A stretch of DNA of 42,154 nt from Nonomuraea rhizosphaerae (lineage in GTDB: Bacteria > Actinomycetota > Actinomycetes > Streptosporangiales > Streptosporangiaceae), in contig NZ_JAHKRL010000373.1 in the NCBI RefSeq assembly GCF_019396405.1, forward strand, positions 1-42,154. The letters run 5' to 3'. Each line of letters begins with the position of its first letter. Positions within the stretch are counted from its first letter, which is position 1. The notes beneath the pieces are model-generated. The model worked only from the letters and a program-made list of their open reading frames with translations. It was not told where the DNA came from and did not search any database. Positions 7,832 to 13,793 of the stretch are shown one piece after another. Both the position numbers and the translations under genes were made by a program.

Positions 7832-8692
7832 TCAGCTCTTCTTCAGGCAGACCACGTAGACGGTGCCGGAGGCGCTGCCGTAGCCGTCCTTCTCCGCCGA
7901 GACCGACCAACTGGCCGAGCCGCTGGGGGCGCTGCTGAGGACCGAGGAGCCCTTGCTGATCGTGAATCCGCCGCCGACCGCCAGGTCGCCGGTGGAGCAG
8001 GAGGCGCTGCCGGAGTTGGAGAAGGAGCTGGAACGGGTGTAGGTCGTGTAGGTCGCGCCGGAGCCGTCCTTCCCGTCCTTGCCGTCCTTGCCGTCGAGGC
8101 CGTTCCTGCCGTCCTTGCCCGGCAGGCCGTCCTTGCCGTTCTTCCCGTCGATCCCGTCCTTGCCGTCCTTGCCGGGAAGACCGTTCTTGCCGTCCTCGCC
8201 GTTCTTGCCGTCCTTACCGGGCAGGCCGTCCTTGCCGTCCTTGCCGTCGATCCCGTCCTTGCCGTTCTTGCCGTCCTCGCCGTTCTTCCCGTCCTTGCCC
8301 GGCAGGCCGTCCTTGCCGTCCTTGCCGTCAATACCGTTCTTGCCGTCGACGCCGTTCTTGCCGGGCAGGCCCTGCTTGCCGCGGGGGCCGGGGGCGCCCT
8401 GGAGGCCGGTGTCACCCTTCGGGCCCTGCGCGCCCGTGTCGCCCTTCTGGCCCTCGACCACGGTCGTCGTCGAGGTGCCGCCACCACCGCCGATCACCAT
8501 CCGCGTCTCGGTCTTCCTGCACGGCGTGGTGGTGTTGACGATGCGGACGTACCGCGACTTCTTGTTGACGCAGGCGGTCACCTGCTCCGCCGACGACGCG
8601 GTGGCGACGCCCCCGACGGCGAGGAGCGACGCTGCCAGTGCTCCGACAGTGGCGAGGGTGAGCGTGCGCCCCCCGGGAACCTTGATGGTCAC
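7832..8692 (-). CDS. Secreted collagen-like (Gly-X-Y repeat) protein
   Basis: This 286-residue protein has a probable Sec signal peptide (basic MTIKVPGGR, hydrophobic 11-30, AxA-like cleavage near 35) and a short N-terminal domain with Cys41 and Cys58. A Gly run (68-72) is followed by 43 uninterrupted Gly-X-Y triplets (81-209) and a 75-residue Ser/Gly-rich C-terminal domain with Cys at about 232 and 282. The triplets are mostly GKD, GKN, GED, GID and GLP, arranged as long near-repeats (GLPGKDGKNGEDGKNG). Bacterial collagens fold into triple helices without hydroxyproline, stabilised by charge pairs. The start is GTG at 8692, after GGAAGGA. The gene stands alone and is divergent from the cyclase gene. 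Function (adhesion, surface or spore coat) is not known from sequence. Confidence 0.9.
   Translation of the reverse strand: MTIKVPGGRTLTLATVGALAASLLAVGGVATASSAEQVTACVNKKSRYVRIVNTTTPCRKTETRMVIGGGGGTSTTTVVEGQKGDTGAQGPKGDTGLQGAPGPRGKQGLPGKNGVDGKNGIDGKDGKDGLPGKDGKNGEDGKNGKDGIDGKDGKDGLPGKDGKNGEDGKNGLPGKDGKDGIDGKNGKDGLPGKDGRNGLDGKDGKDGKDGSGATYTTYTRSSSFSNSGSASCSTGDLAVGGGFTISKGSSVLSSAPSGSASWSVSAEKDGYGSASGTVYVVCLKKS
8079..8451. repeat. DNA repeat region encoding the Gly-X-Y collagen domain
   Basis: Nine-base periodicity (CCGTCCTTG-type units on the plus strand) with longer near-identical blocks of about 45-60 bp comes from the GKD/GKN/GLP codon repeats. Such tracts tend to change length by slippage or recombination, so triplet number may vary between strains. 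Confidence 0.75.
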
Positions 8693-8717
8693 GGTTGTCC
8701 TTCCGAGAAACCTGTGG

Positions 8718-8732
8718 TGCTCACGATGAGCA
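8718..8732 (-). promoter_or_regulatory. Small hairpin in the leader of the collagen-like gene
   Basis: TGCTCA/TGAGCA arms (6 bp) with a 3-nt loop lie 26-40 nt upstream of the GTG start, between start codon and any promoter. It could affect mRNA stability or translation. This is weak evidence. Confidence 0.25.
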
Positions 8733-8823
8733 TGAGGTTCACGTTTCAACCGTTCCAATGGATGACAAGAACTACATAACGCATTCATCACGAAACACAG
8801 CGTGACAATCATGGCCAACCTGA

Positions 8824-8837
8824 CTTGACGCGTCAAG
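8824..8837. promoter_or_regulatory. 14-bp perfect palindrome, candidate operator
   Basis: CTTGACGCGTCAAG is a perfect palindrome in the 235-bp region between the divergent collagen-like and cyclase genes. It lies about 28 bp upstream of the likely -35 of the cyclase promoter and could serve either gene. The cognate regulator is unknown. Confidence 0.45.
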
Positions 8838-8864
8838 AACGACGCCAGCTCGTAAAAGGACGCA

Positions 8865-8892
8865 TTGGCGGGGTCCGTATCCGGTGGATAAT
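8865..8892 (+). promoter_or_regulatory. Likely promoter of the cyclase gene
   Basis: TTGGCG (8865-8870) and GATAAT (8887-8892) with a 16-bp spacer resemble a vegetative (HrdB/sigma-70 type) promoter. Transcription would begin near 8899, leaving about 29 nt before the GTG at 8928. Confidence 0.5.
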
Positions 8893-8927
8893 CAGGACCG
8901 TTAGGGGGCTTGCACACATCCACGGGA

Positions 8928-10955
8928 GTGACCTTGCCGACCGCCAGTCCCTATCTACCCCCTGCTACGCAGCCCGTACGGGGGGTCGTCTGGGCCATAC
9001 ATCTGATCCTGCCGCTGCTGGGCCTCTGGCTCCTGCTCGCCCAGCCCGACCTGAACTACAAATGGGAGCACCACGCCAGCCACTTCTGGATGATCATCTC
9101 GCTGGCGGGCCTCAACGTCGCGCTCGCCGCGCTGATCAGTGAGGCGTCACGCAGGCGGCACGACGCCCGGCTGTTCCTGGTCTCGATGGTCTTCGTGGCC
9201 AGCGCGGGGTTCTTCTTCCTGCACGGCCTGGCCACGCCGCAGGTGATCCTGCCCACCGGCTCGCTCGGGTTCGACCTCGGGCAGCAGGTCGGGCTCACGA
9301 TCGCGTCCGGCTTCGCGTTCGTCTCGTCGTTCCCCCTGGGCGACAAGGCGGCCGAGACCGTCCTGCGCTACCAGCACTTCATCAGGGGCGTGCTGTTCGG
9401 CTTCATGGTGCTGTGGGGGTTCGCCTCGCTGATCCCAGGGCTGACGCCGCTCAGCGAGCCGCCGTTCAAGGAGCCCGTGGACTGGGTCGCGGTGATGTCG
9501 CTGCCGGGCCTCGCCCTGTACGGGGCGGCCAGCGTGATGATGTTCCTGCTGCACCGGCGCCGGCCCTCGGCCATGCTGGTCAGCCTGATCACCGCGTACG
9601 CGCTGCTGGCCGAGGCCATGGTCGCCGGGATGTCGCAGCTCAACTGGCACCTGTCGTGGTGGGAGTGGCACATCCTGCTGACGCTGGCCTTCGTCTTCGT
9701 CGCCTACAGCGCCTACCTGCAGTTCAGGCGCGAGGGGTCGAGCGCGGGCCTGTTCGACTCGGTGGCGCTCGCGGCGACCGTGGCCCGCATCCAGCGCCAG
9801 TACGAGGACGCGCTGGAGGAGATGGTCGAGCACGTGCGGCGGGGCGAGCCGCTGGCCGCGACCCGGCTGTCGGAGAAGTTCCGGCTCAACGAGGGGCAGG
9901 CCGCGGTGCTCGACCGGGCCGGCGCGGCGCTGGCCAACGAGCGTGAGCTGACCCAGCGCCTGGGCGCCCTGGTGGCGGTCAGCGCCCAGACCCGCCTGCA
10001 CCAGCCCGAGACCGAGCTGCTGGCCACCGCGCTGGAGCGGGTGCGGCAGGCGTACGGGGACGTGCGCATCGGCCTGGTGGCCGAGGGCAGGGCGCAGATC
10101 GGCTCGCGCGAGTACGAGTTCCCCGACAACACCCCGGTCAGGCGCGACAGCCTCATGGCCTACCCCCTGACCGTCAAGGGCCATCTGGCGGGCGTCCTGG
10201 AGGTGCCGGTCGGGCGGACCCAGCAGGACGAGGCCCTGGCCGCGACCCTGGCCGGGCAGCTGTCCATCTCGCTGGAGAACGCCCGCCTCTACCAGGAGCT
10301 GGACACGCTGTTCAAGCAGTACATGTCGCCCGACGTGGCCAACGCGCTGCTCGCCGACCCGGCGCAGGCGGCGCTCGGCGGCCAGCTCAAGGAGCTGACG
10401 GCGTTGTTCGCCGACCTCAAGGGCTTCACCACGTTCTCCGAGCGGGTCACCCCCGGCGAGATCGTCGAGATGCTCAACCGCTACCACACGGCCGCGGTCC
10501 CCTGCATCCTCGACAACGGCGGCACGATCGTGCAGTTCGTCGGCGACGCGCTGCTGGCCCTGTTCAACGCCCCCGCCACGCAGCGCGACCACGCCGCGGC
10601 GGCCTGCCGGGCGGCGCTGGCGATGCAGGAGGCCGCCGCCGAGGTGTCGGAGGAGGTGGCCTGGAAGGACAACGGGGGCAGCGTCGAGTGGCCGATGTTC
10701 CGCGTCGGCGTCAACACCGGCCCGGCCCTGGTCGGCAACATCGGCAGCCCCAGGCTGCGCGGCTTCAACGCCATGGGCGACTGCGTGAACGTGGCCGCCA
10801 GGCTGCAGGCCCTCGCCGAGCCCGGCACGGTGGTGATCGGGGAGACCACGCGCAGGCAGCTCGGCCCCACCGTCAAGGTCAACTCCCTGGGACAGCTCAG
10901 TCTCAAGGGCAAGGAGGAAACTGTAGGAGCGTACGTTCTGACCGCGATGAGCTAG
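8928..10955 (+). CDS. Membrane class III adenylate/guanylate cyclase with atypical substrate residues
   Basis: This 675-residue protein has about seven transmembrane segments in residues 20-265, a helical linker, a GAF-like region (about 335-450) and a C-terminal class III cyclase domain (about 470-675). Both metal-binding aspartates are present (Asp496 in FADLKGFT, Asp540 in FVGDALLA), as are the transition-state Asn621 and Arg625 (VNVAARL). The purine-selecting pair, normally Lys/Asp in adenylate cyclases, is Gln536/Asn614. A Crp-family regulator follows 33 bp later, which makes cAMP a reasonable product, but cGMP or mixed activity is possible. The GTG at 8928 is preferred; an in-frame TTG at 8910 would add 6 residues, and neither has a well-placed ribosome site. 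Confidence 0.9.
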   Translation: MTLPTASPYLPPATQPVRGVVWAIHLILPLLGLWLLLAQPDLNYKWEHHASHFWMIISLAGLNVALAALISEASRRRHDARLFLVSMVFVASAGFFFLHGLATPQVILPTGSLGFDLGQQVGLTIASGFAFVSSFPLGDKAAETVLRYQHFIRGVLFGFMVLWGFASLIPGLTPLSEPPFKEPVDWVAVMSLPGLALYGAASVMMFLLHRRRPSAMLVSLITAYALLAEAMVAGMSQLNWHLSWWEWHILLTLAFVFVAYSAYLQFRREGSSAGLFDSVALAATVARIQRQYEDALEEMVEHVRRGEPLAATRLSEKFRLNEGQAAVLDRAGAALANERELTQRLGALVAVSAQTRLHQPETELLATALERVRQAYGDVRIGLVAEGRAQIGSREYEFPDNTPVRRDSLMAYPLTVKGHLAGVLEVPVGRTQQDEALAATLAGQLSISLENARLYQELDTLFKQYMSPDVANALLADPAQAALGGQLKELTALFADLKGFTTFSERVTPGEIVEMLNRYHTAAVPCILDNGGTIVQFVGDALLALFNAPATQRDHAAAACRAALAMQEAAAEVSEEVAWKDNGGSVEWPMFRVGVNTGPALVGNIGSPRLRGFNAMGDCVNVAARLQALAEPGTVVIGETTRRQLGPTVKVNSLGQLSLKGKEETVGAYVLTAMS

Positions 10956-10975
10956 AAGGGCGCTGCTCATACCGA

Positions 10976-10981
10976 CATAAT
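10976..10981 (+). promoter_or_regulatory. -10 box of a probable leaderless promoter for the Crp-family gene
   Basis: CATAAT ends 7 nt before the ATG at 10989, so transcription would start at or next to the start codon. No Shine-Dalgarno sequence precedes this ATG. The -35 region is weak. Confidence 0.5.
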
Positions 10982-10988
10982 CGGCGGC

Positions 10989-11651
10989 ATGAACGCAGAG
11001 GCCGGCGAGTTCCTCTCCATGCTCACCCCCGAAGAGGTCGATGAGCTGCGTGCCGCTGGACGGCCGCGGCGGTGGGAGCGCGGCACGACCGTGATGACCG
11101 AGGGCGACACCTCCGACTGGGTGCTCGTCCTGACGGAAGGAAGGGTGAAGGTCTCCTCCCACACCAGCAGCGGGACCGAGGTCGTGCTGGCCGTACGCGG
11201 GCCGGGCGGGCTGCTCGGCGAGATGTCGGCCATCGACGGCTCGCCGCGCTCGGCCACCGTCACCGCCCTGGAGCCGATCGCGGGCATCGTGGTCCGCGAC
11301 TTCCCCAACTTCCTGCAGATGCACGGCCGCATCGCGGTGCTGCTCATGCAGCTGGTGACCGGGCGGCTGCGGGACGCCGACAGGAAGCGGATCGAATATG
11401 GAGCGTTCGACACCACCGGCCGCGTGGCGACCCGGCTGATCGAGCTGGCCGAGCGCTACGGCGAGAAGACCAACAGCGGCGTCCGCGTGGCGCTGCCGCT
11501 CTCCCAGGACGAGCTCGCCGGATGGACCGGCGCGTCGCGGGAGGCGGTCAGCAAGGCGTTGCGCACGTTGCGCGACCGCGGGCTGATCGAGACGGGGCGG
11601 CGGCGCGTGGTGATCCACGACCTGGAAGGGCTGCGCAAGCGCGCCAGGTAA
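10989..11651 (+). CDS. Crp/Fnr-family transcriptional regulator
   Basis: This 220-residue protein has an N-terminal cyclic-nucleotide-binding-like domain (about 8-125) and a C-terminal winged helix. The phosphate-binding-cassette region reads GGLLGEMSAIDGSPRSATVTA, close to the GE..(x)..R(S/T)A pattern of cAMP-binding Crp proteins, so ligand binding is plausible. The recognition helix lies in LSQDELAGWTGASREAVSKALRTL. Placement directly after a nucleotide cyclase gene suggests a synthesis-sensor pair. No SD is seen, and the ATG is probably used by a leaderless mRNA. Confidence 0.92.
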   Translation: MNAEAGEFLSMLTPEEVDELRAAGRPRRWERGTTVMTEGDTSDWVLVLTEGRVKVSSHTSSGTEVVLAVRGPGGLLGEMSAIDGSPRSATVTALEPIAGIVVRDFPNFLQMHGRIAVLLMQLVTGRLRDADRKRIEYGAFDTTGRVATRLIELAERYGEKTNSGVRVALPLSQDELAGWTGASREAVSKALRTLRDRGLIETGRRRVVIHDLEGLRKRAR

Positions 11652-11681
11652 CCCCGGACAAATCGTACGTACGTCGTACGC

Positions 11682-11687
11682 CATAGT
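11682..11687 (+). promoter_or_regulatory. -10 box of a probable leaderless promoter for the first MFS gene
   Basis: CATAGT is followed by exactly 7 nt and then the ATG at 11695, the same layout as at the upstream Crp gene. No SD lies before this ATG. The preceding TACGTACGT tract is a short alternating repeat. Confidence 0.45.
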
Positions 11688-11694
11688 GGACGGC

Positions 11695-13131
11695 ATGCCG
11701 TCAGAGCGTGACCCCCGCCTCCGCTACGCCTGGCGCGTCTGCTCGGTGACCAGCCTGGGGCTCGTCCTCATCGGCATCGCGGGCAGCACCTTGAACGTCG
11801 CGCTGCCCACGGTGGTCCGCCACTTCCAGGCGGGCCCGTTCGAGTCCGGCTGGATCCTGCTGTCGTTCCTGCTGGTGAACACCGCGAGCCTGGTGTTCTT
11901 CGGCCGGGTGGCCGACCTGCTGGGCAGGCGGGAGGTGTACCTGGCGGGGTTCGCGCTGTTCACCGTCGCCTCGCTGCTGGCGGGGCTGGCGCCGGACGTG
12001 TGGTTCCTGGTCGGGATGCGCGTGCTGCAGGCGGTCGGCGCGGCGATGATCCTCTCCAACGGCACCGTGATCATCGCCGACGCGTTCCCGCCGGAGAAGC
12101 TCAGCCAGGGCATGGGCGTCTACATGGGCACGCTGTCCGTGGCGCAGCTCGCCGGGCCCACGCTCGGCGGCCTGATCGCCGAGGCGGCGGGCTGGCAGTG
12201 GATCTTCTGGGTGAACGTGCCGGCGGGGCTGCTGGCGTTCGGCTGGGGCGCCGCGATCCTCCGCAAGACGCCCAGAGGGCCCAAGGAGCCGGTGGACGCG
12301 CTGGGCAACGCGCTGGTGTTCGCGGCACTGTCGGCCCTGCTGCTGGCCCTCTCGGAGGCGGGCTCGGCCGGTCTGTCGAGCCCGGTCGTGCTGACGGGGG
12401 CGGCGGTGTTCGCCGTGCTGGCGCCGCTGATCGCGCTGGTGGAGCGGCGGGCCGCGCATCCCCTGCTGGACCTGCGGCTGTTCGGCGGGCGGATGCTGGC
12501 CTTCGCGAACCTGGCCTCCTTCTGCAACGCCCTGGCGCGCGCCGCGCTGATCCTGGTCGTGGCGCTGTACTTCCAGGCGGCCCGGGGCGTGGACGCCTTC
12601 ACGGCGGGGCTGAGCATCCTGCCGGTGCCGGTGGGCATGGCCGTCGCCTCGCCGCTGGCCGGCTCGCTCAAGATCTCGCCGTACGTGCTGGCGATCTGCG
12701 GCACGCTGATGAGCGCGCTCGGGCTGGGCACGCTCATGCTGACGGCCGACCCGTCGACGCCGTACTGGATCATCGGCGCCGGCCTGTTCGTGGCGGGCTG
12801 CGGCAGCGGCACGTTCCTGACCGGCAACACCACCCAGGTCATGCGCGCGCTGCCACCCGGCAGCCTGGGGGTGGTCAACGGCTTCCGCGTCATGGTGATG
12901 AACGTGGGCGTCGTGATCAGCGTCGGCCTGTCGCTGAGCGTCCTGGCCGGCTCCGTGGGGCCGGAGCTGCGCGCCCAGGTGTACGGGGCGACGCTGTCGC
13001 GGCTGTCGCCGGTGGCGGTCGGGCAGCTGATGCACGGCTTCCAGCGCACGTACGCGGTGCTGTTCGCGGTGGCCCTGCTCGGCGCCCTCTTCGCCGGCCT
13101 GGCCCGCTCCAGGCCCCGCGCAGCGCCCTAG
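11695..13131 (+). CDS. MFS drug-efflux transporter, DHA2 (EmrB/QacA) type
   Basis: This 478-residue integral membrane protein with about 14 hydrophobic segments belongs to the proton-driven multidrug exporters. The loop 2-3 motif A appears as GRVADLLGRREV and the antiporter motif C region as GPTLGGLIAEAAGWQWIFWVN. Its substrate cannot be predicted. It converges on the TetR gene: the two stop codons overlap within a single CTAG (13128-13131). A GTG nine bases upstream is an alternative start. Confidence 0.9.
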   Translation: MPSERDPRLRYAWRVCSVTSLGLVLIGIAGSTLNVALPTVVRHFQAGPFESGWILLSFLLVNTASLVFFGRVADLLGRREVYLAGFALFTVASLLAGLAPDVWFLVGMRVLQAVGAAMILSNGTVIIADAFPPEKLSQGMGVYMGTLSVAQLAGPTLGGLIAEAAGWQWIFWVNVPAGLLAFGWGAAILRKTPRGPKEPVDALGNALVFAALSALLLALSEAGSAGLSSPVVLTGAAVFAVLAPLIALVERRAAHPLLDLRLFGGRMLAFANLASFCNALARAALILVVALYFQAARGVDAFTAGLSILPVPVGMAVASPLAGSLKISPYVLAICGTLMSALGLGTLMLTADPSTPYWIIGAGLFVAGCGSGTFLTGNTTQVMRALPPGSLGVVNGFRVMVMNVGVVISVGLSLSVLAGSVGPELRAQVYGATLSRLSPVAVGQLMHGFQRTYAVLFAVALLGALFAGLARSRPRAAP

Positions 13132-13781
13132 TTCCTGGCCGCGAGCTTCTCGATGCCGGACATGACGAGGTCGACGCCGAAGGTGTCGTAGAGGTCGGCG
13201 CTCATGCCCGACACCATCGGGCCGGCCATCTCCACCAGGTTCGGGTACCGGCCCGCCGGGAGCGACTGCAGCCCGAGGCGCTTGACCCTGACGATCTCCT
13301 CCAGCTGCTCGGGCGTGTGGGTGCTGCGGAAGTGGACCGGGCCGTCGGCGATGGAGATCGCGCTCTGCAGGATGTACTTGGAGATCAGGCAGGACTCGTC
13401 CGCGTTGAATCCGGCGGCCCGCGCCAGGCCCAGCGCCTCGTCCCAGACCGCCAGGAAGCTGGGCACCGTCAGCGGGTCCACCTGCTCCAGGATGTTCTTG
13501 GCGCAGGGGTGGGCGCGCAGGACGCGGATCAGCCCGTCGACCATCTCGCGCAGCCGCTCCCGCCACGGGCGCTCGTCGCCGGTCTTCGGCGCGAACCCTG
13601 AGATCAGGTGGTCGGCCATGCCGACGAGCAGCAGCTCCTTGTTCTTGAAGTGCCAGTAGAGGGCCATCGGGGTCACGCCGAGGTCGGCCGCCAGCCGCCG
13701 GATCGTCAGGCCGTCGAGCCCTTCGGCGTCGCCGATCTCCAGAGCCCGGCCGACGATGGCCGCCGCCGTCAGTTTTCCCAT
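13128..13781 (-). CDS. TetR-family repressor (tetracycline-repressor-like C-terminal domain)
   Basis: This 217-residue regulator has an N-terminal helix-turn-helix (TIRRLAADLGVTPMALYWHFKNKELLL) and a ligand-binding domain similar in layout to TetR itself. It is divergent from an MFS exporter gene (start 13852), and a multi-half-site operator (13794-13842) fills the gap. The simplest model is repression of the exporter and itself until an exported compound binds. Start is ATG 13781; GTG 13784 and TTG 13793 are possible alternatives. Confidence 0.92.
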   Translation of the reverse strand: MGKLTAAAIVGRALEIGDAEGLDGLTIRRLAADLGVTPMALYWHFKNKELLLVGMADHLISGFAPKTGDERPWRERLREMVDGLIRVLRAHPCAKNILEQVDPLTVPSFLAVWDEALGLARAAGFNADESCLISKYILQSAISIADGPVHFRSTHTPEQLEEIVRVKRLGLQSLPAGRYPNLVEMAGPMVSGMSADLYDTFGVDLVMSGIEKLAARN

Positions 13782-13786
13782 CACGG

Positions 13787-13792
13787 TTGACA
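13787..13792 (+). promoter_or_regulatory. Consensus -35-like hexamer TTGACA upstream of the second MFS gene
   Basis: TTGACA abuts the operator on its TetR-gene side. A -10 at standard distance would fall inside the palindrome, though no clear hexamer is seen there. If real, repressor binding would block RNA polymerase directly. Confidence 0.35.
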
Positions 13793-13793
13793 A

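What the first reader, a model, noticed from the sequence alone, without database searches (positions are those of the whole stretch)
8928..11651. Cyclase with Gln/Asn in place of the Lys/Asp purine-selecting pair, next to a Crp regulator
Metal and transition-state residues are intact, so activity is likely, but residues 536 and 614 are Gln and Asn. The mycobacterial cyclase Rv0386 is reported to have a Gln/Asn pair and mixed purine use. The downstream Crp-type protein keeps a GE...RSA cassette, so the pair may be a local second-messenger circuit using cAMP, cGMP or both.
Basis: partly seen in the sequence, partly recalled or inferred. Interest (0 to 1): 0.6.

Follow-up and report, generated by a model that had tools for sequence, protein, structure and literature searches.

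The report
Membrane cyclase paired with Crp receptor
This soil actinomycete carries a conserved two-gene signalling unit, a membrane sensor that makes a cyclic nucleotide and a partner DNA-binding receptor, and both proteins have changed the residues that normally pick out cyclic AMP, so the messenger may be cyclic GMP or a mixture.

Summary
The 675-aa class III cyclase (8928-10955) keeps its metal and transition-state residues but has Gln536/Asn614 at the purine-selecting positions; a Crp-type regulator starts 33 bp downstream. The two are an old module: all 41 Gln/Asn cyclases among 71 related loci have this Crp downstream on the same strand (35 of 41 within 35 bp), and they form one fully supported clade.

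The sensor is an 8-helix, MASE3-like membrane domain with three invariant histidines. No cyclase of this sensor family keeps the usual Lys (0 of 70 named loci, 0 of 12 further ones); 36 of 37 other actinobacterial class III cyclases sampled do.

The Crp keeps the ribose/phosphate contacts, but its C-helix base-contact pair is Ala/Ser130-Asp131, not the Thr-Ser of E. coli CRP or the Thr-Asn of the housekeeping Crp in the same genomes. An acidic C-helix residue reads guanine in the cGMP receptor XC_0249. Against this: 7 of 42 other Crp homologues, with no family cyclase beside them, also have Asp there.

Best reading: a private membrane-sensor, messenger and transcription circuit, separate from housekeeping cAMP-Crp, using cGMP or both nucleotides. 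The pairing is well supported; the nucleotide is inferred and needs an assay.

The parts
8928..10955 (+). Membrane-bound class III nucleotidyl cyclase, 675 aa, GTG start
   Evidence: ORF; Pfam Guanylate_cyc E 4e-25; full-length relatives at 74-86% identity in 52 of 53 same-genus genomes
8967..9761 (+). N-terminal 8-helix membrane sensor domain, MASE3-like (residues 14-278)
   Evidence: AlphaFold models, mean pLDDT 84.3 and 85.6; Pfam MASE3 matched by 18 of 43 family members, best E 5.2e-05, not by the window's own copy
9081..9083 (+). His52, invariant sensor histidine
   Evidence: 55 of 55 rows with a residue; 13 of 13 further sequences from the unbiased search
9222..9224 (+). His99, invariant sensor histidine
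   Evidence: 55 of 55; 13 of 13
9645..9671 (+). WHLSWWEWH motif (240-248), last residue His248 invariant
   Evidence: 57 of 57, but WHLSWWEW was a search pattern, so only His248 counts there; unbiased search: His248 14 of 14, His241 only 7 of 14
9756..10316 (+). Helical linker, weak GAF-like segment (about 361-427) and signalling helix (432-463)
   Evidence: Model secondary structure; Pfam GAF_2 18.0 bits, below its cut-off
10377..10952 (+). Catalytic domain (residues 484-675)
   Evidence: Foldseek against PDB: Cya2 2w01 TM 0.89-0.91 (target-normalised), 34% identity; CyaC, CyaB close behind
10413..10415 (+). Asp496, metal ligand
   Evidence: 57 of 57
10533..10535 (+). Gln536 at the purine-selecting Lys position
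   Evidence: Q in 36 of 57 aligned relatives, never K
10545..10547 (+). Asp540, metal ligand
   Evidence: 57 of 57
10767..10769 (+). Asn614 at the purine-selecting Asp/Thr position
   Evidence: N in 32 of 57
10788..10802 (+). Asn621 to Arg625, transition-state pair
   Evidence: Both 57 of 57
10989..11651 (+). Crp-type receptor and transcription regulator, 220 aa
   Evidence: Pfam cNMP_binding E 7.9e-17 and HTH_Crp_2 E 5.1e-20; closest solved chains GlxR and mycobacterial CRP
11220..11252 (+). Ribose/phosphate cassette E78...R87-S88
   Evidence: Aligned to E. coli CRP; counts
11376..11381 (+). Ala130-Asp131, C-helix positions of E. coli CRP Thr127/Ser128
   Evidence: Gap-free here; Asp131 in 42 of 43 linked Crp
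8865..8892 (+). Conserved promoter-like element TTGGCG-16-GATAAT upstream of the cyclase
   Evidence: Alignment of 19 upstream regions; function inferred
10976..10981 (+). CATAAT, 7 nt before the Crp ATG; possible own leaderless-type promoter of crp
   Evidence: Seen in most Nonomuraea intergenic regions printed; function inferred

Best explanation
The two genes are one signalling module. An 8-helix MASE3-like domain senses an unknown signal at the membrane and, through a helical linker and a GAF-like segment, controls a homodimeric class III cyclase. The cyclase is active but does not use the usual Lys/Asp purine pocket; with Gln536/Asn614 it makes cGMP, or cGMP together with cAMP. The Crp encoded next to it binds that product: its E78/R87/S88 cassette holds ribose and phosphate and its C-helix Asp131, facing the pocket of the partner subunit, helps to read the base. 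It then acts on promoters through a CRP-like recognition helix. Because both the enzyme's and the receptor's base-reading residues differ from the Lys/Asp cyclase and the Thr-Asn Crp of the same genomes, the module is probably insulated from the housekeeping cAMP pathway. Shown: anatomy, conservation, linkage, single origin. Inferred: activity, nucleotide, binding, insulation, regulated genes.
For: Pairing: 41 of 41 Gln/Asn loci carry this Crp downstream on the same strand, 35 of 41 within 35 bp and 5 of 41 with overlapping or abutting ends. One branch of a 70-row tree, 100/100, holds all 32 Gln/Asn+Crp rows used; 0 of 500 label shuffles were as low. Whole-genome profile: of 26 genomes examined for both proteins, 10 have both, 14 neither, 1 a truncated cyclase without the Crp, 1 the Crp without the cyclase. 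Micromonosporaceae MAG loci keep the pair although purL and the transporter are not seen within their flanks. Altered purine pocket: no Lys in 70 readable family loci nor in 12 further ones (a 13th, L189, equals L074), while 36 of 37 other class III cyclases sampled keep it. Altered receptor: Asp131 in 42 of 43 linked Crp; the housekeeping Crp of the same Nonomuraea genomes has Thr-Asn there (L159, L161-L163), and those genomes' other cyclases keep Lys (12 of 12 aligned). In XC_0249 the C-helix Glu146 carboxylate bonds guanine N1 and N2 (PMC3770947, section 8). Closest solved catalytic domain is the guanylyl cyclase Cya2.
Against: No assay. Cya2 stands barely above the adenylyl cyclases CyaC and CyaB. 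Seven of 42 non-orthologous Crp homologues also have Asp131 and show no family cyclase in their roughly 1.5 kb flanks, so Asp131 is not specific to the pair. In 12 of 43 linked Crp the ribose Glu78 is Asp. The Pseudonocardia relative (Gln/Thr cyclase) sits beside a Crp that has lost E78, S88 and D131. G054 has the Crp (61% identity) without the cyclase. In G033 the two genes are about 1.15 kb apart and in L056 1.7 kb. No TGTGA-N6-TCACA site with at most one mismatch lies upstream of the cyclase in 40 regions scanned. E146/D131 equivalence rests on the paper's wording and an alignment to E. coli CRP, not on an alignment to XC_0249.
Confidence: 0.55

Rival explanations
1. An ordinary cAMP circuit. 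The Gln/Asn pair still selects mainly ATP, as in Rv0386, and the Crp responds to cAMP; the C-helix change only tunes affinity.
For: Rv0386 is chiefly an adenylyl cyclase with 20% guanylyl side activity (PMC4452763 passages). The Crp keeps E78, R87 and S88 in the window, and its closest solved relatives are cAMP-type GlxR and mycobacterial CRP.
Against: Thr127/Ser128 of E. coli CRP are Ala/Ser and Asp in the linked Crp; housekeeping Lys/Asp cyclases and a Thr-Asn Crp already exist in the same genomes, so a second cAMP pair would be open to cross-talk.
Confidence: 0.33
2. The Crp does not bind a cyclic nucleotide, or the cyclase is no longer active; linkage is historical.
For: Pocket Glu is Asp in 12 of 43 Crp; a Crp homologue lives without the cyclase in G054.
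Against: All four catalytic residues are 57 of 57 conserved; R87 and S88 are each kept in 42 of 43. In the one genome where the cyclase is truncated (G056) its transition-state Asn is Asp and the Crp is missing, as if the two decay together.
Confidence: 0.08
3. The product is another cyclic nucleotide such as cUMP or cCMP.
For: The purine pocket is non-standard across the family: Q, R, H, S or C in place of Lys.
Against: No pyrimidine-cyclase model was tested and no feature seen points to it; the fold and motifs are those of ordinary class IIIb purine cyclases.
Confidence: 0.04

Closest known systems
Rv0386 (mycobacterial cyclase-ATPase-LuxR protein)
   Same: Gln/Asn at the purine-selecting positions (recalled); intact catalytic set; actinobacterial
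   Different: Rv0386 is soluble and fused to its own DNA-binding domain (PMC4452763 passages); here the cyclase has a membrane sensor and the regulator is a separate Crp
CgrA and the gcy cluster of Rhodospirillum centenum
   Same: Cyclase genes next to a CRP homologue; there the messenger is cGMP (PMC4681086 passages)
   Different: Alphaproteobacterial, multi-subunit cyclase; the cyclases were not compared here
XC_0250/XC_0249 of Xanthomonas campestris
   Same: Linked class III cyclase and cyclic-nucleotide receptor; acidic C-helix residue reading guanine (PMC3770947 section 8)
   Different: Receptor output is a GGDEF domain, not DNA binding
CyaC, CyaB and Cya2 (class IIIb cyclases)
   Same: Catalytic-domain fold, target-normalised TM about 0.84-0.91
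   Different: CyaB keeps the Lys; the Lys of CyaC and the Glu/Gly pair of Cya2 are recalled
MASE3 membrane-associated sensor domain (PF17159)
   Same: Matched by 18 of 43 family members
   Different: The window copy itself does not match at E up to 1; scores are weak

Membership tests
Class III nucleotidyl cyclase | Catalytic fold with two metal Asp and Asn/Arg transition-state pair | tested here: met
Canonical class III adenylyl cyclase | Lys at the first purine-selecting position with Asp or Thr at the second | tested here: not met
   Q536/N614
Canonical guanylyl cyclase | Glu at the first purine-selecting position (recalled) | tested here: not met
   Q536; no Glu there in the 57-row alignment
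Gln/Asn mixed-purine cyclase like Rv0386 | Gln/Asn pair | tested here: met
Gln/Asn mixed-purine cyclase like Rv0386 | Measured use of both ATP and GTP | not testable with these tools
   Needs an enzyme assay
CRP/FNR cAMP receptor | cNMP-binding domain and HTH_Crp domain | tested here: met
CRP/FNR cAMP receptor | Glu-Arg-Ser ribose/phosphate cassette | tested here: met
   E78, R87, S88 in the window; E78 varies in relatives
CRP/FNR cAMP receptor | C-helix Thr127/Ser128 adenine contacts | tested here: not met
   Ala130/Asp131
MASE3 sensor domain | Match to the Pfam model above its cut-off | tested here: inconclusive
   18 of 43 members match, best E 5.2e-05; window copy no match

The most novel reading that the evidence does not exclude
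A private cGMP (or mixed cGMP/cAMP) channel in Gram-positive actinomycetes: a MASE3-like membrane sensor cyclase and its own Crp changed their base-reading residues together once, in a common ancestor of the Streptosporangiaceae and Micromonosporaceae copies, and so became separate from the housekeeping cAMP-Crp pathway running in the same cell.
Probability: 0.35. Interest if true: 0.72.

Novelty: new variant of a known kind. Interest (0 to 1): 0.5.

Why it matters
cGMP signalling in bacteria is known from few organisms, and how two cyclic mononucleotide pathways stay apart in one cell is an open question. Here the enzyme and the receptor are adjacent, small and soluble in their key parts, and the same genomes hold a Lys/Asp cyclase and a Thr-Asn Crp as built-in controls, so the question can be tested with two assays. 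The membrane sensor with three invariant histidines, also found in front of an HD-GYP domain, is a further uncharacterised input domain.

Tried and rejected
Autoregulation by a standard Crp site: TGTGA-N6-TCACA was scanned in 300 bp upstream of the cyclase in 40 regions; 3 had a hit at two mismatches (L034, L062, L067) and none at fewer; with the shorter GTGA-N6-TCAC core 6 regions had a hit at one mismatch. Not pursued.

Fold of the sensor: Foldseek gave no match at E 0.001 or better; the best rows are GPCRs at TM 0.5 or below. VIA-align 2 gave Z up to 12.8, which its own note calls possible noise for helical bundles. No kinship to GPCRs is claimed. The weak Pfam hit to 7TMR-DISM_7TM (21.6 bits, cut-off 29) is not used.

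Invariance of the whole WHLSWWEWH motif: set aside, because WHLSWWEW was one of the search patterns; the unbiased search showed His241 varies (7 of 14).

Functional link to purine synthesis from purL next door: 33 of 41 Gln/Asn loci have purL within about 4 kb upstream and 33 of 41 the same transporter downstream, but Micromonosporaceae and Spongiactinospora loci show neither, so this is taken as shared ancestry of the locus. Three of the eight loci without purL are cut by a contig end upstream (L045, L059, L073).

Literature: no paper in the held library has Nonomuraea, adenylate cyclase and Crp together; MASE3/MASE4 search gave only unrelated papers. The listings showed no title on this module; those papers were not opened. 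The original Rv0386 paper was not available; only its title in a reference list and a second-hand statement were seen. PMC2447327 was held as abstract and references only.

Rows left out: 14 of the loci L033-L103 (13 near copies and L083, truncated) were dropped before the tree, as were L176, L189 and L190; L083 is unreadable at the purine positions; L116 was not scored; L172 and L175 gave no alignment.
Full report
What is there. The window lies in a fragmented, 64% complete genome of 5.9 Mb; its nearest named relatives are Nonomuraea. ORF 8928-10955 is a 675-aa protein; 10989-11651 is a 220-aa Crp-type regulator 33 bp further on. Pfam finds the class III cyclase domain at residues 488-671 and weak GAF matches below cut-off; the second protein has cNMP_binding and HTH_Crp_2. 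Alignment with CyaB places Gln536 at the Lys and Asn614 at the Asp/Thr position of the purine pocket (numbering). Asp496, Asp540, Asn621 and Arg625 are invariant in 57 of 57 relatives.

The cyclase family. A scan of named genomes gave 71 loci encoding relatives. The purine-position pairs are: Gln/Asn 41, Arg/Thr 18, His/Ala 4, Ser/Thr 2, Gln/Thr 2, and one each of Gln/Ala, Cys/Thr and Gln/Gly, with one locus unreadable. None of the 70 readable loci has Lys. That scan used peptide patterns from the query, so an unbiased profile search with the sensor domain was made over 296 genomes of the phylum: 15 had a match, the window's own included. Of the 14 others, 13 carry a cyclase and again none has Lys; one of the 13, L189, is identical to L074, so 12 are new. 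The fourteenth, L190, has an HD-GYP-like sequence behind the sensor (named from its letters, not from a database search). For contrast, 37 class III cyclases outside the family, taken as the best-scoring loci of two searches, were aligned: 36 have Lys and one Gln. I counted as family the 9 rows that score above 250 bits with the family model; the next row scores 155. In four Nonomuraea genomes the paired cyclase is Gln/Asn, and the 12 other cyclases that could be aligned all have Lys (11 with Asp).

The pairing. All 41 Gln/Asn loci have the Crp downstream on the same strand; in 35 of 41 within 35 bp, in 5 of 41 overlapping or abutting, and in one 1.7 kb away. One Gln/Thr locus (Pseudonocardia, L072) has a distant Crp (31% identity) in the same place; the other Gln/Thr locus, L074, has none in its 4 kb downstream, and no other family locus showed one in its flank. 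In a 70-row tree all 32 Gln/Asn+Crp rows lie on one branch, support 100/100, in 200 of 200 bootstrap trees; 0 of 500 shuffles were as low. Whole genomes: 52 of 53 same-genus genomes have a full-length match to the cyclase. The exception, G009, has only a distant cyclase, and its best Crp is 38% identical, in the range of the housekeeping Crp. Counting the 26 genomes examined for both proteins: both in 10 (G010, G011, G020, G026, G033, G050, G061, G067, G129, G224), neither in 14, and two exceptions. G056 has a cyclase without its sensor and with Asp at the transition-state Asn, and no Crp orthologue. G054 has a 61% identical Crp and no family cyclase. In G033 the two genes are about 1.15 kb apart.

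The sensor. The model shows eight helices long enough to span the membrane before the linker. Of 43 family members scanned singly, 18 match Pfam MASE3, best E 5.2e-05; the window copy does not match MASE3 at E up to 1. His52, His99 and His248 are invariant in the pattern-based set and in the unbiased set (13 of 13, 13 of 13 and 14 of 14 others), including L190. His241 is not (7 of 14). If the C-terminal cyclase is cytoplasmic and all eight helices cross the membrane, the three histidines lie near the outer face; that is inference. A metal, haem or quinone site is possible and untested. No solved fold was found for this domain.

The receptor. Against E. coli CRP (fetched) the window Crp keeps Glu, Arg and Ser of the ribose/phosphate cassette (E78, R87, S88) and the Arg-Glu of the recognition helix, with Lys for the last Arg, but has Ala130-Asp131 where E. 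coli has Thr127-Ser128. GlxR has Thr-Asn there (alignment). Among 43 linked Crp, Asp131 is kept in 42, position 130 is Ala in 29 and Ser in 13, and E78 is Asp in 12; the Pseudonocardia protein has lost E78, S88 and D131. Among 42 non-orthologous Crp homologues from two searches, Asp131 occurs in 7, Glu in 2; Thr-Asn is commonest with 13. None of the 7 shows a family-type cyclase in its roughly 1.5 kb flanks. So Asp131 is a mark of the paired Crp but not unique to it. In XC_0249, a cGMP receptor with an affinity of about 0.3 uM for cGMP against 18 uM for cAMP, Glu146 of the opposing C-helix makes two bonds to guanine N1 and N2, and Asn145 one to O6 (PMC3770947, section 8); the paper names this pair as the main difference from E. 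coli CRP (passage). It also says that the pair is absent from the R. centenum cGMP effector (passage), so an acidic residue is not the only way to bind cGMP.

Mechanism. The most likely reading is a one-input, one-output circuit: membrane signal, cyclase, messenger, Crp, promoters. Enzyme and receptor both differ from the Lys/Asp cyclase and Thr-Asn Crp of the same genomes, which suggests insulation from housekeeping cAMP. I favour cGMP or a mixture over cAMP alone, but only slightly, because the Gln/Asn enzyme Rv0386 is still mainly an adenylyl cyclase (20% guanylyl side activity, PMC4452763 passages). The nearest solved catalytic domain is the guanylyl cyclase Cya2, but adenylyl cyclases follow at once.

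Known or new. Linked cyclase-receptor pairs using cGMP are known from R. centenum (CgrA, PMC4681086 passages) and Xanthomonas (PMC3770947). A search for Nonomuraea with adenylate cyclase and Crp found no paper. I rate this a new variant of a known kind.

Expression. Nonomuraea upstream regions share TTGGCG-like and GATAATCGG sequences shortly before the start codon, and CATAATCGG lies 7-9 nt before the crp ATG in most Nonomuraea loci printed. This looks like a promoter for each gene, with leaderless or nearly leaderless mRNA, so crp may also be expressed apart from the cyclase. In several outgroup loci the genes overlap instead. No standard Crp site was found upstream.

Noticed in passing
L190 (G426:C130:7197-7958, minus strand): The same histidine-bearing membrane domain (E 6e-22) stands before an HD-GYP-like sequence instead of a cyclase, so it may be a general sensor module; the HD-GYP name is from reading the letters.
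   Followed up: partly
G010 C1:11766738-11769186; G033 C1:5943014-5945518; G050 C1:5443925-5446402: A second Crp homologue (31-33% identity) lies close to another cyclase, of the long Lys/Asp type, in three Nonomuraea genomes: a possible second cyclase-Crp pair.
   Followed up: no
G056:C43 (L238), purL side: Truncated cyclase that lacks the sensor domain, with Asp at the transition-state Asn, next to purL; no orthologous Crp found in that genome. Described only.
   Followed up: partly
window 7832-8923, minus strand: Collagen-like protein with many GKDG/GKNG repeats between purL and the cyclase, read divergently from the cyclase.
   Followed up: no
window 10976-10988 and 8865-8892: Conserved ATAATCGG elements a few bases before the crp start and upstream of the cyclase; leaderless-type promoters are likely in Nonomuraea.
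   Followed up: partly
window 11652-13793: MFS-type transporter after crp, kept in 33 of 41 Gln/Asn loci, with a convergent TetR-like gene; GTACGTACGTCGTACG precedes the transporter and could be an operator. Names from reading the sequence.
   Followed up: partly
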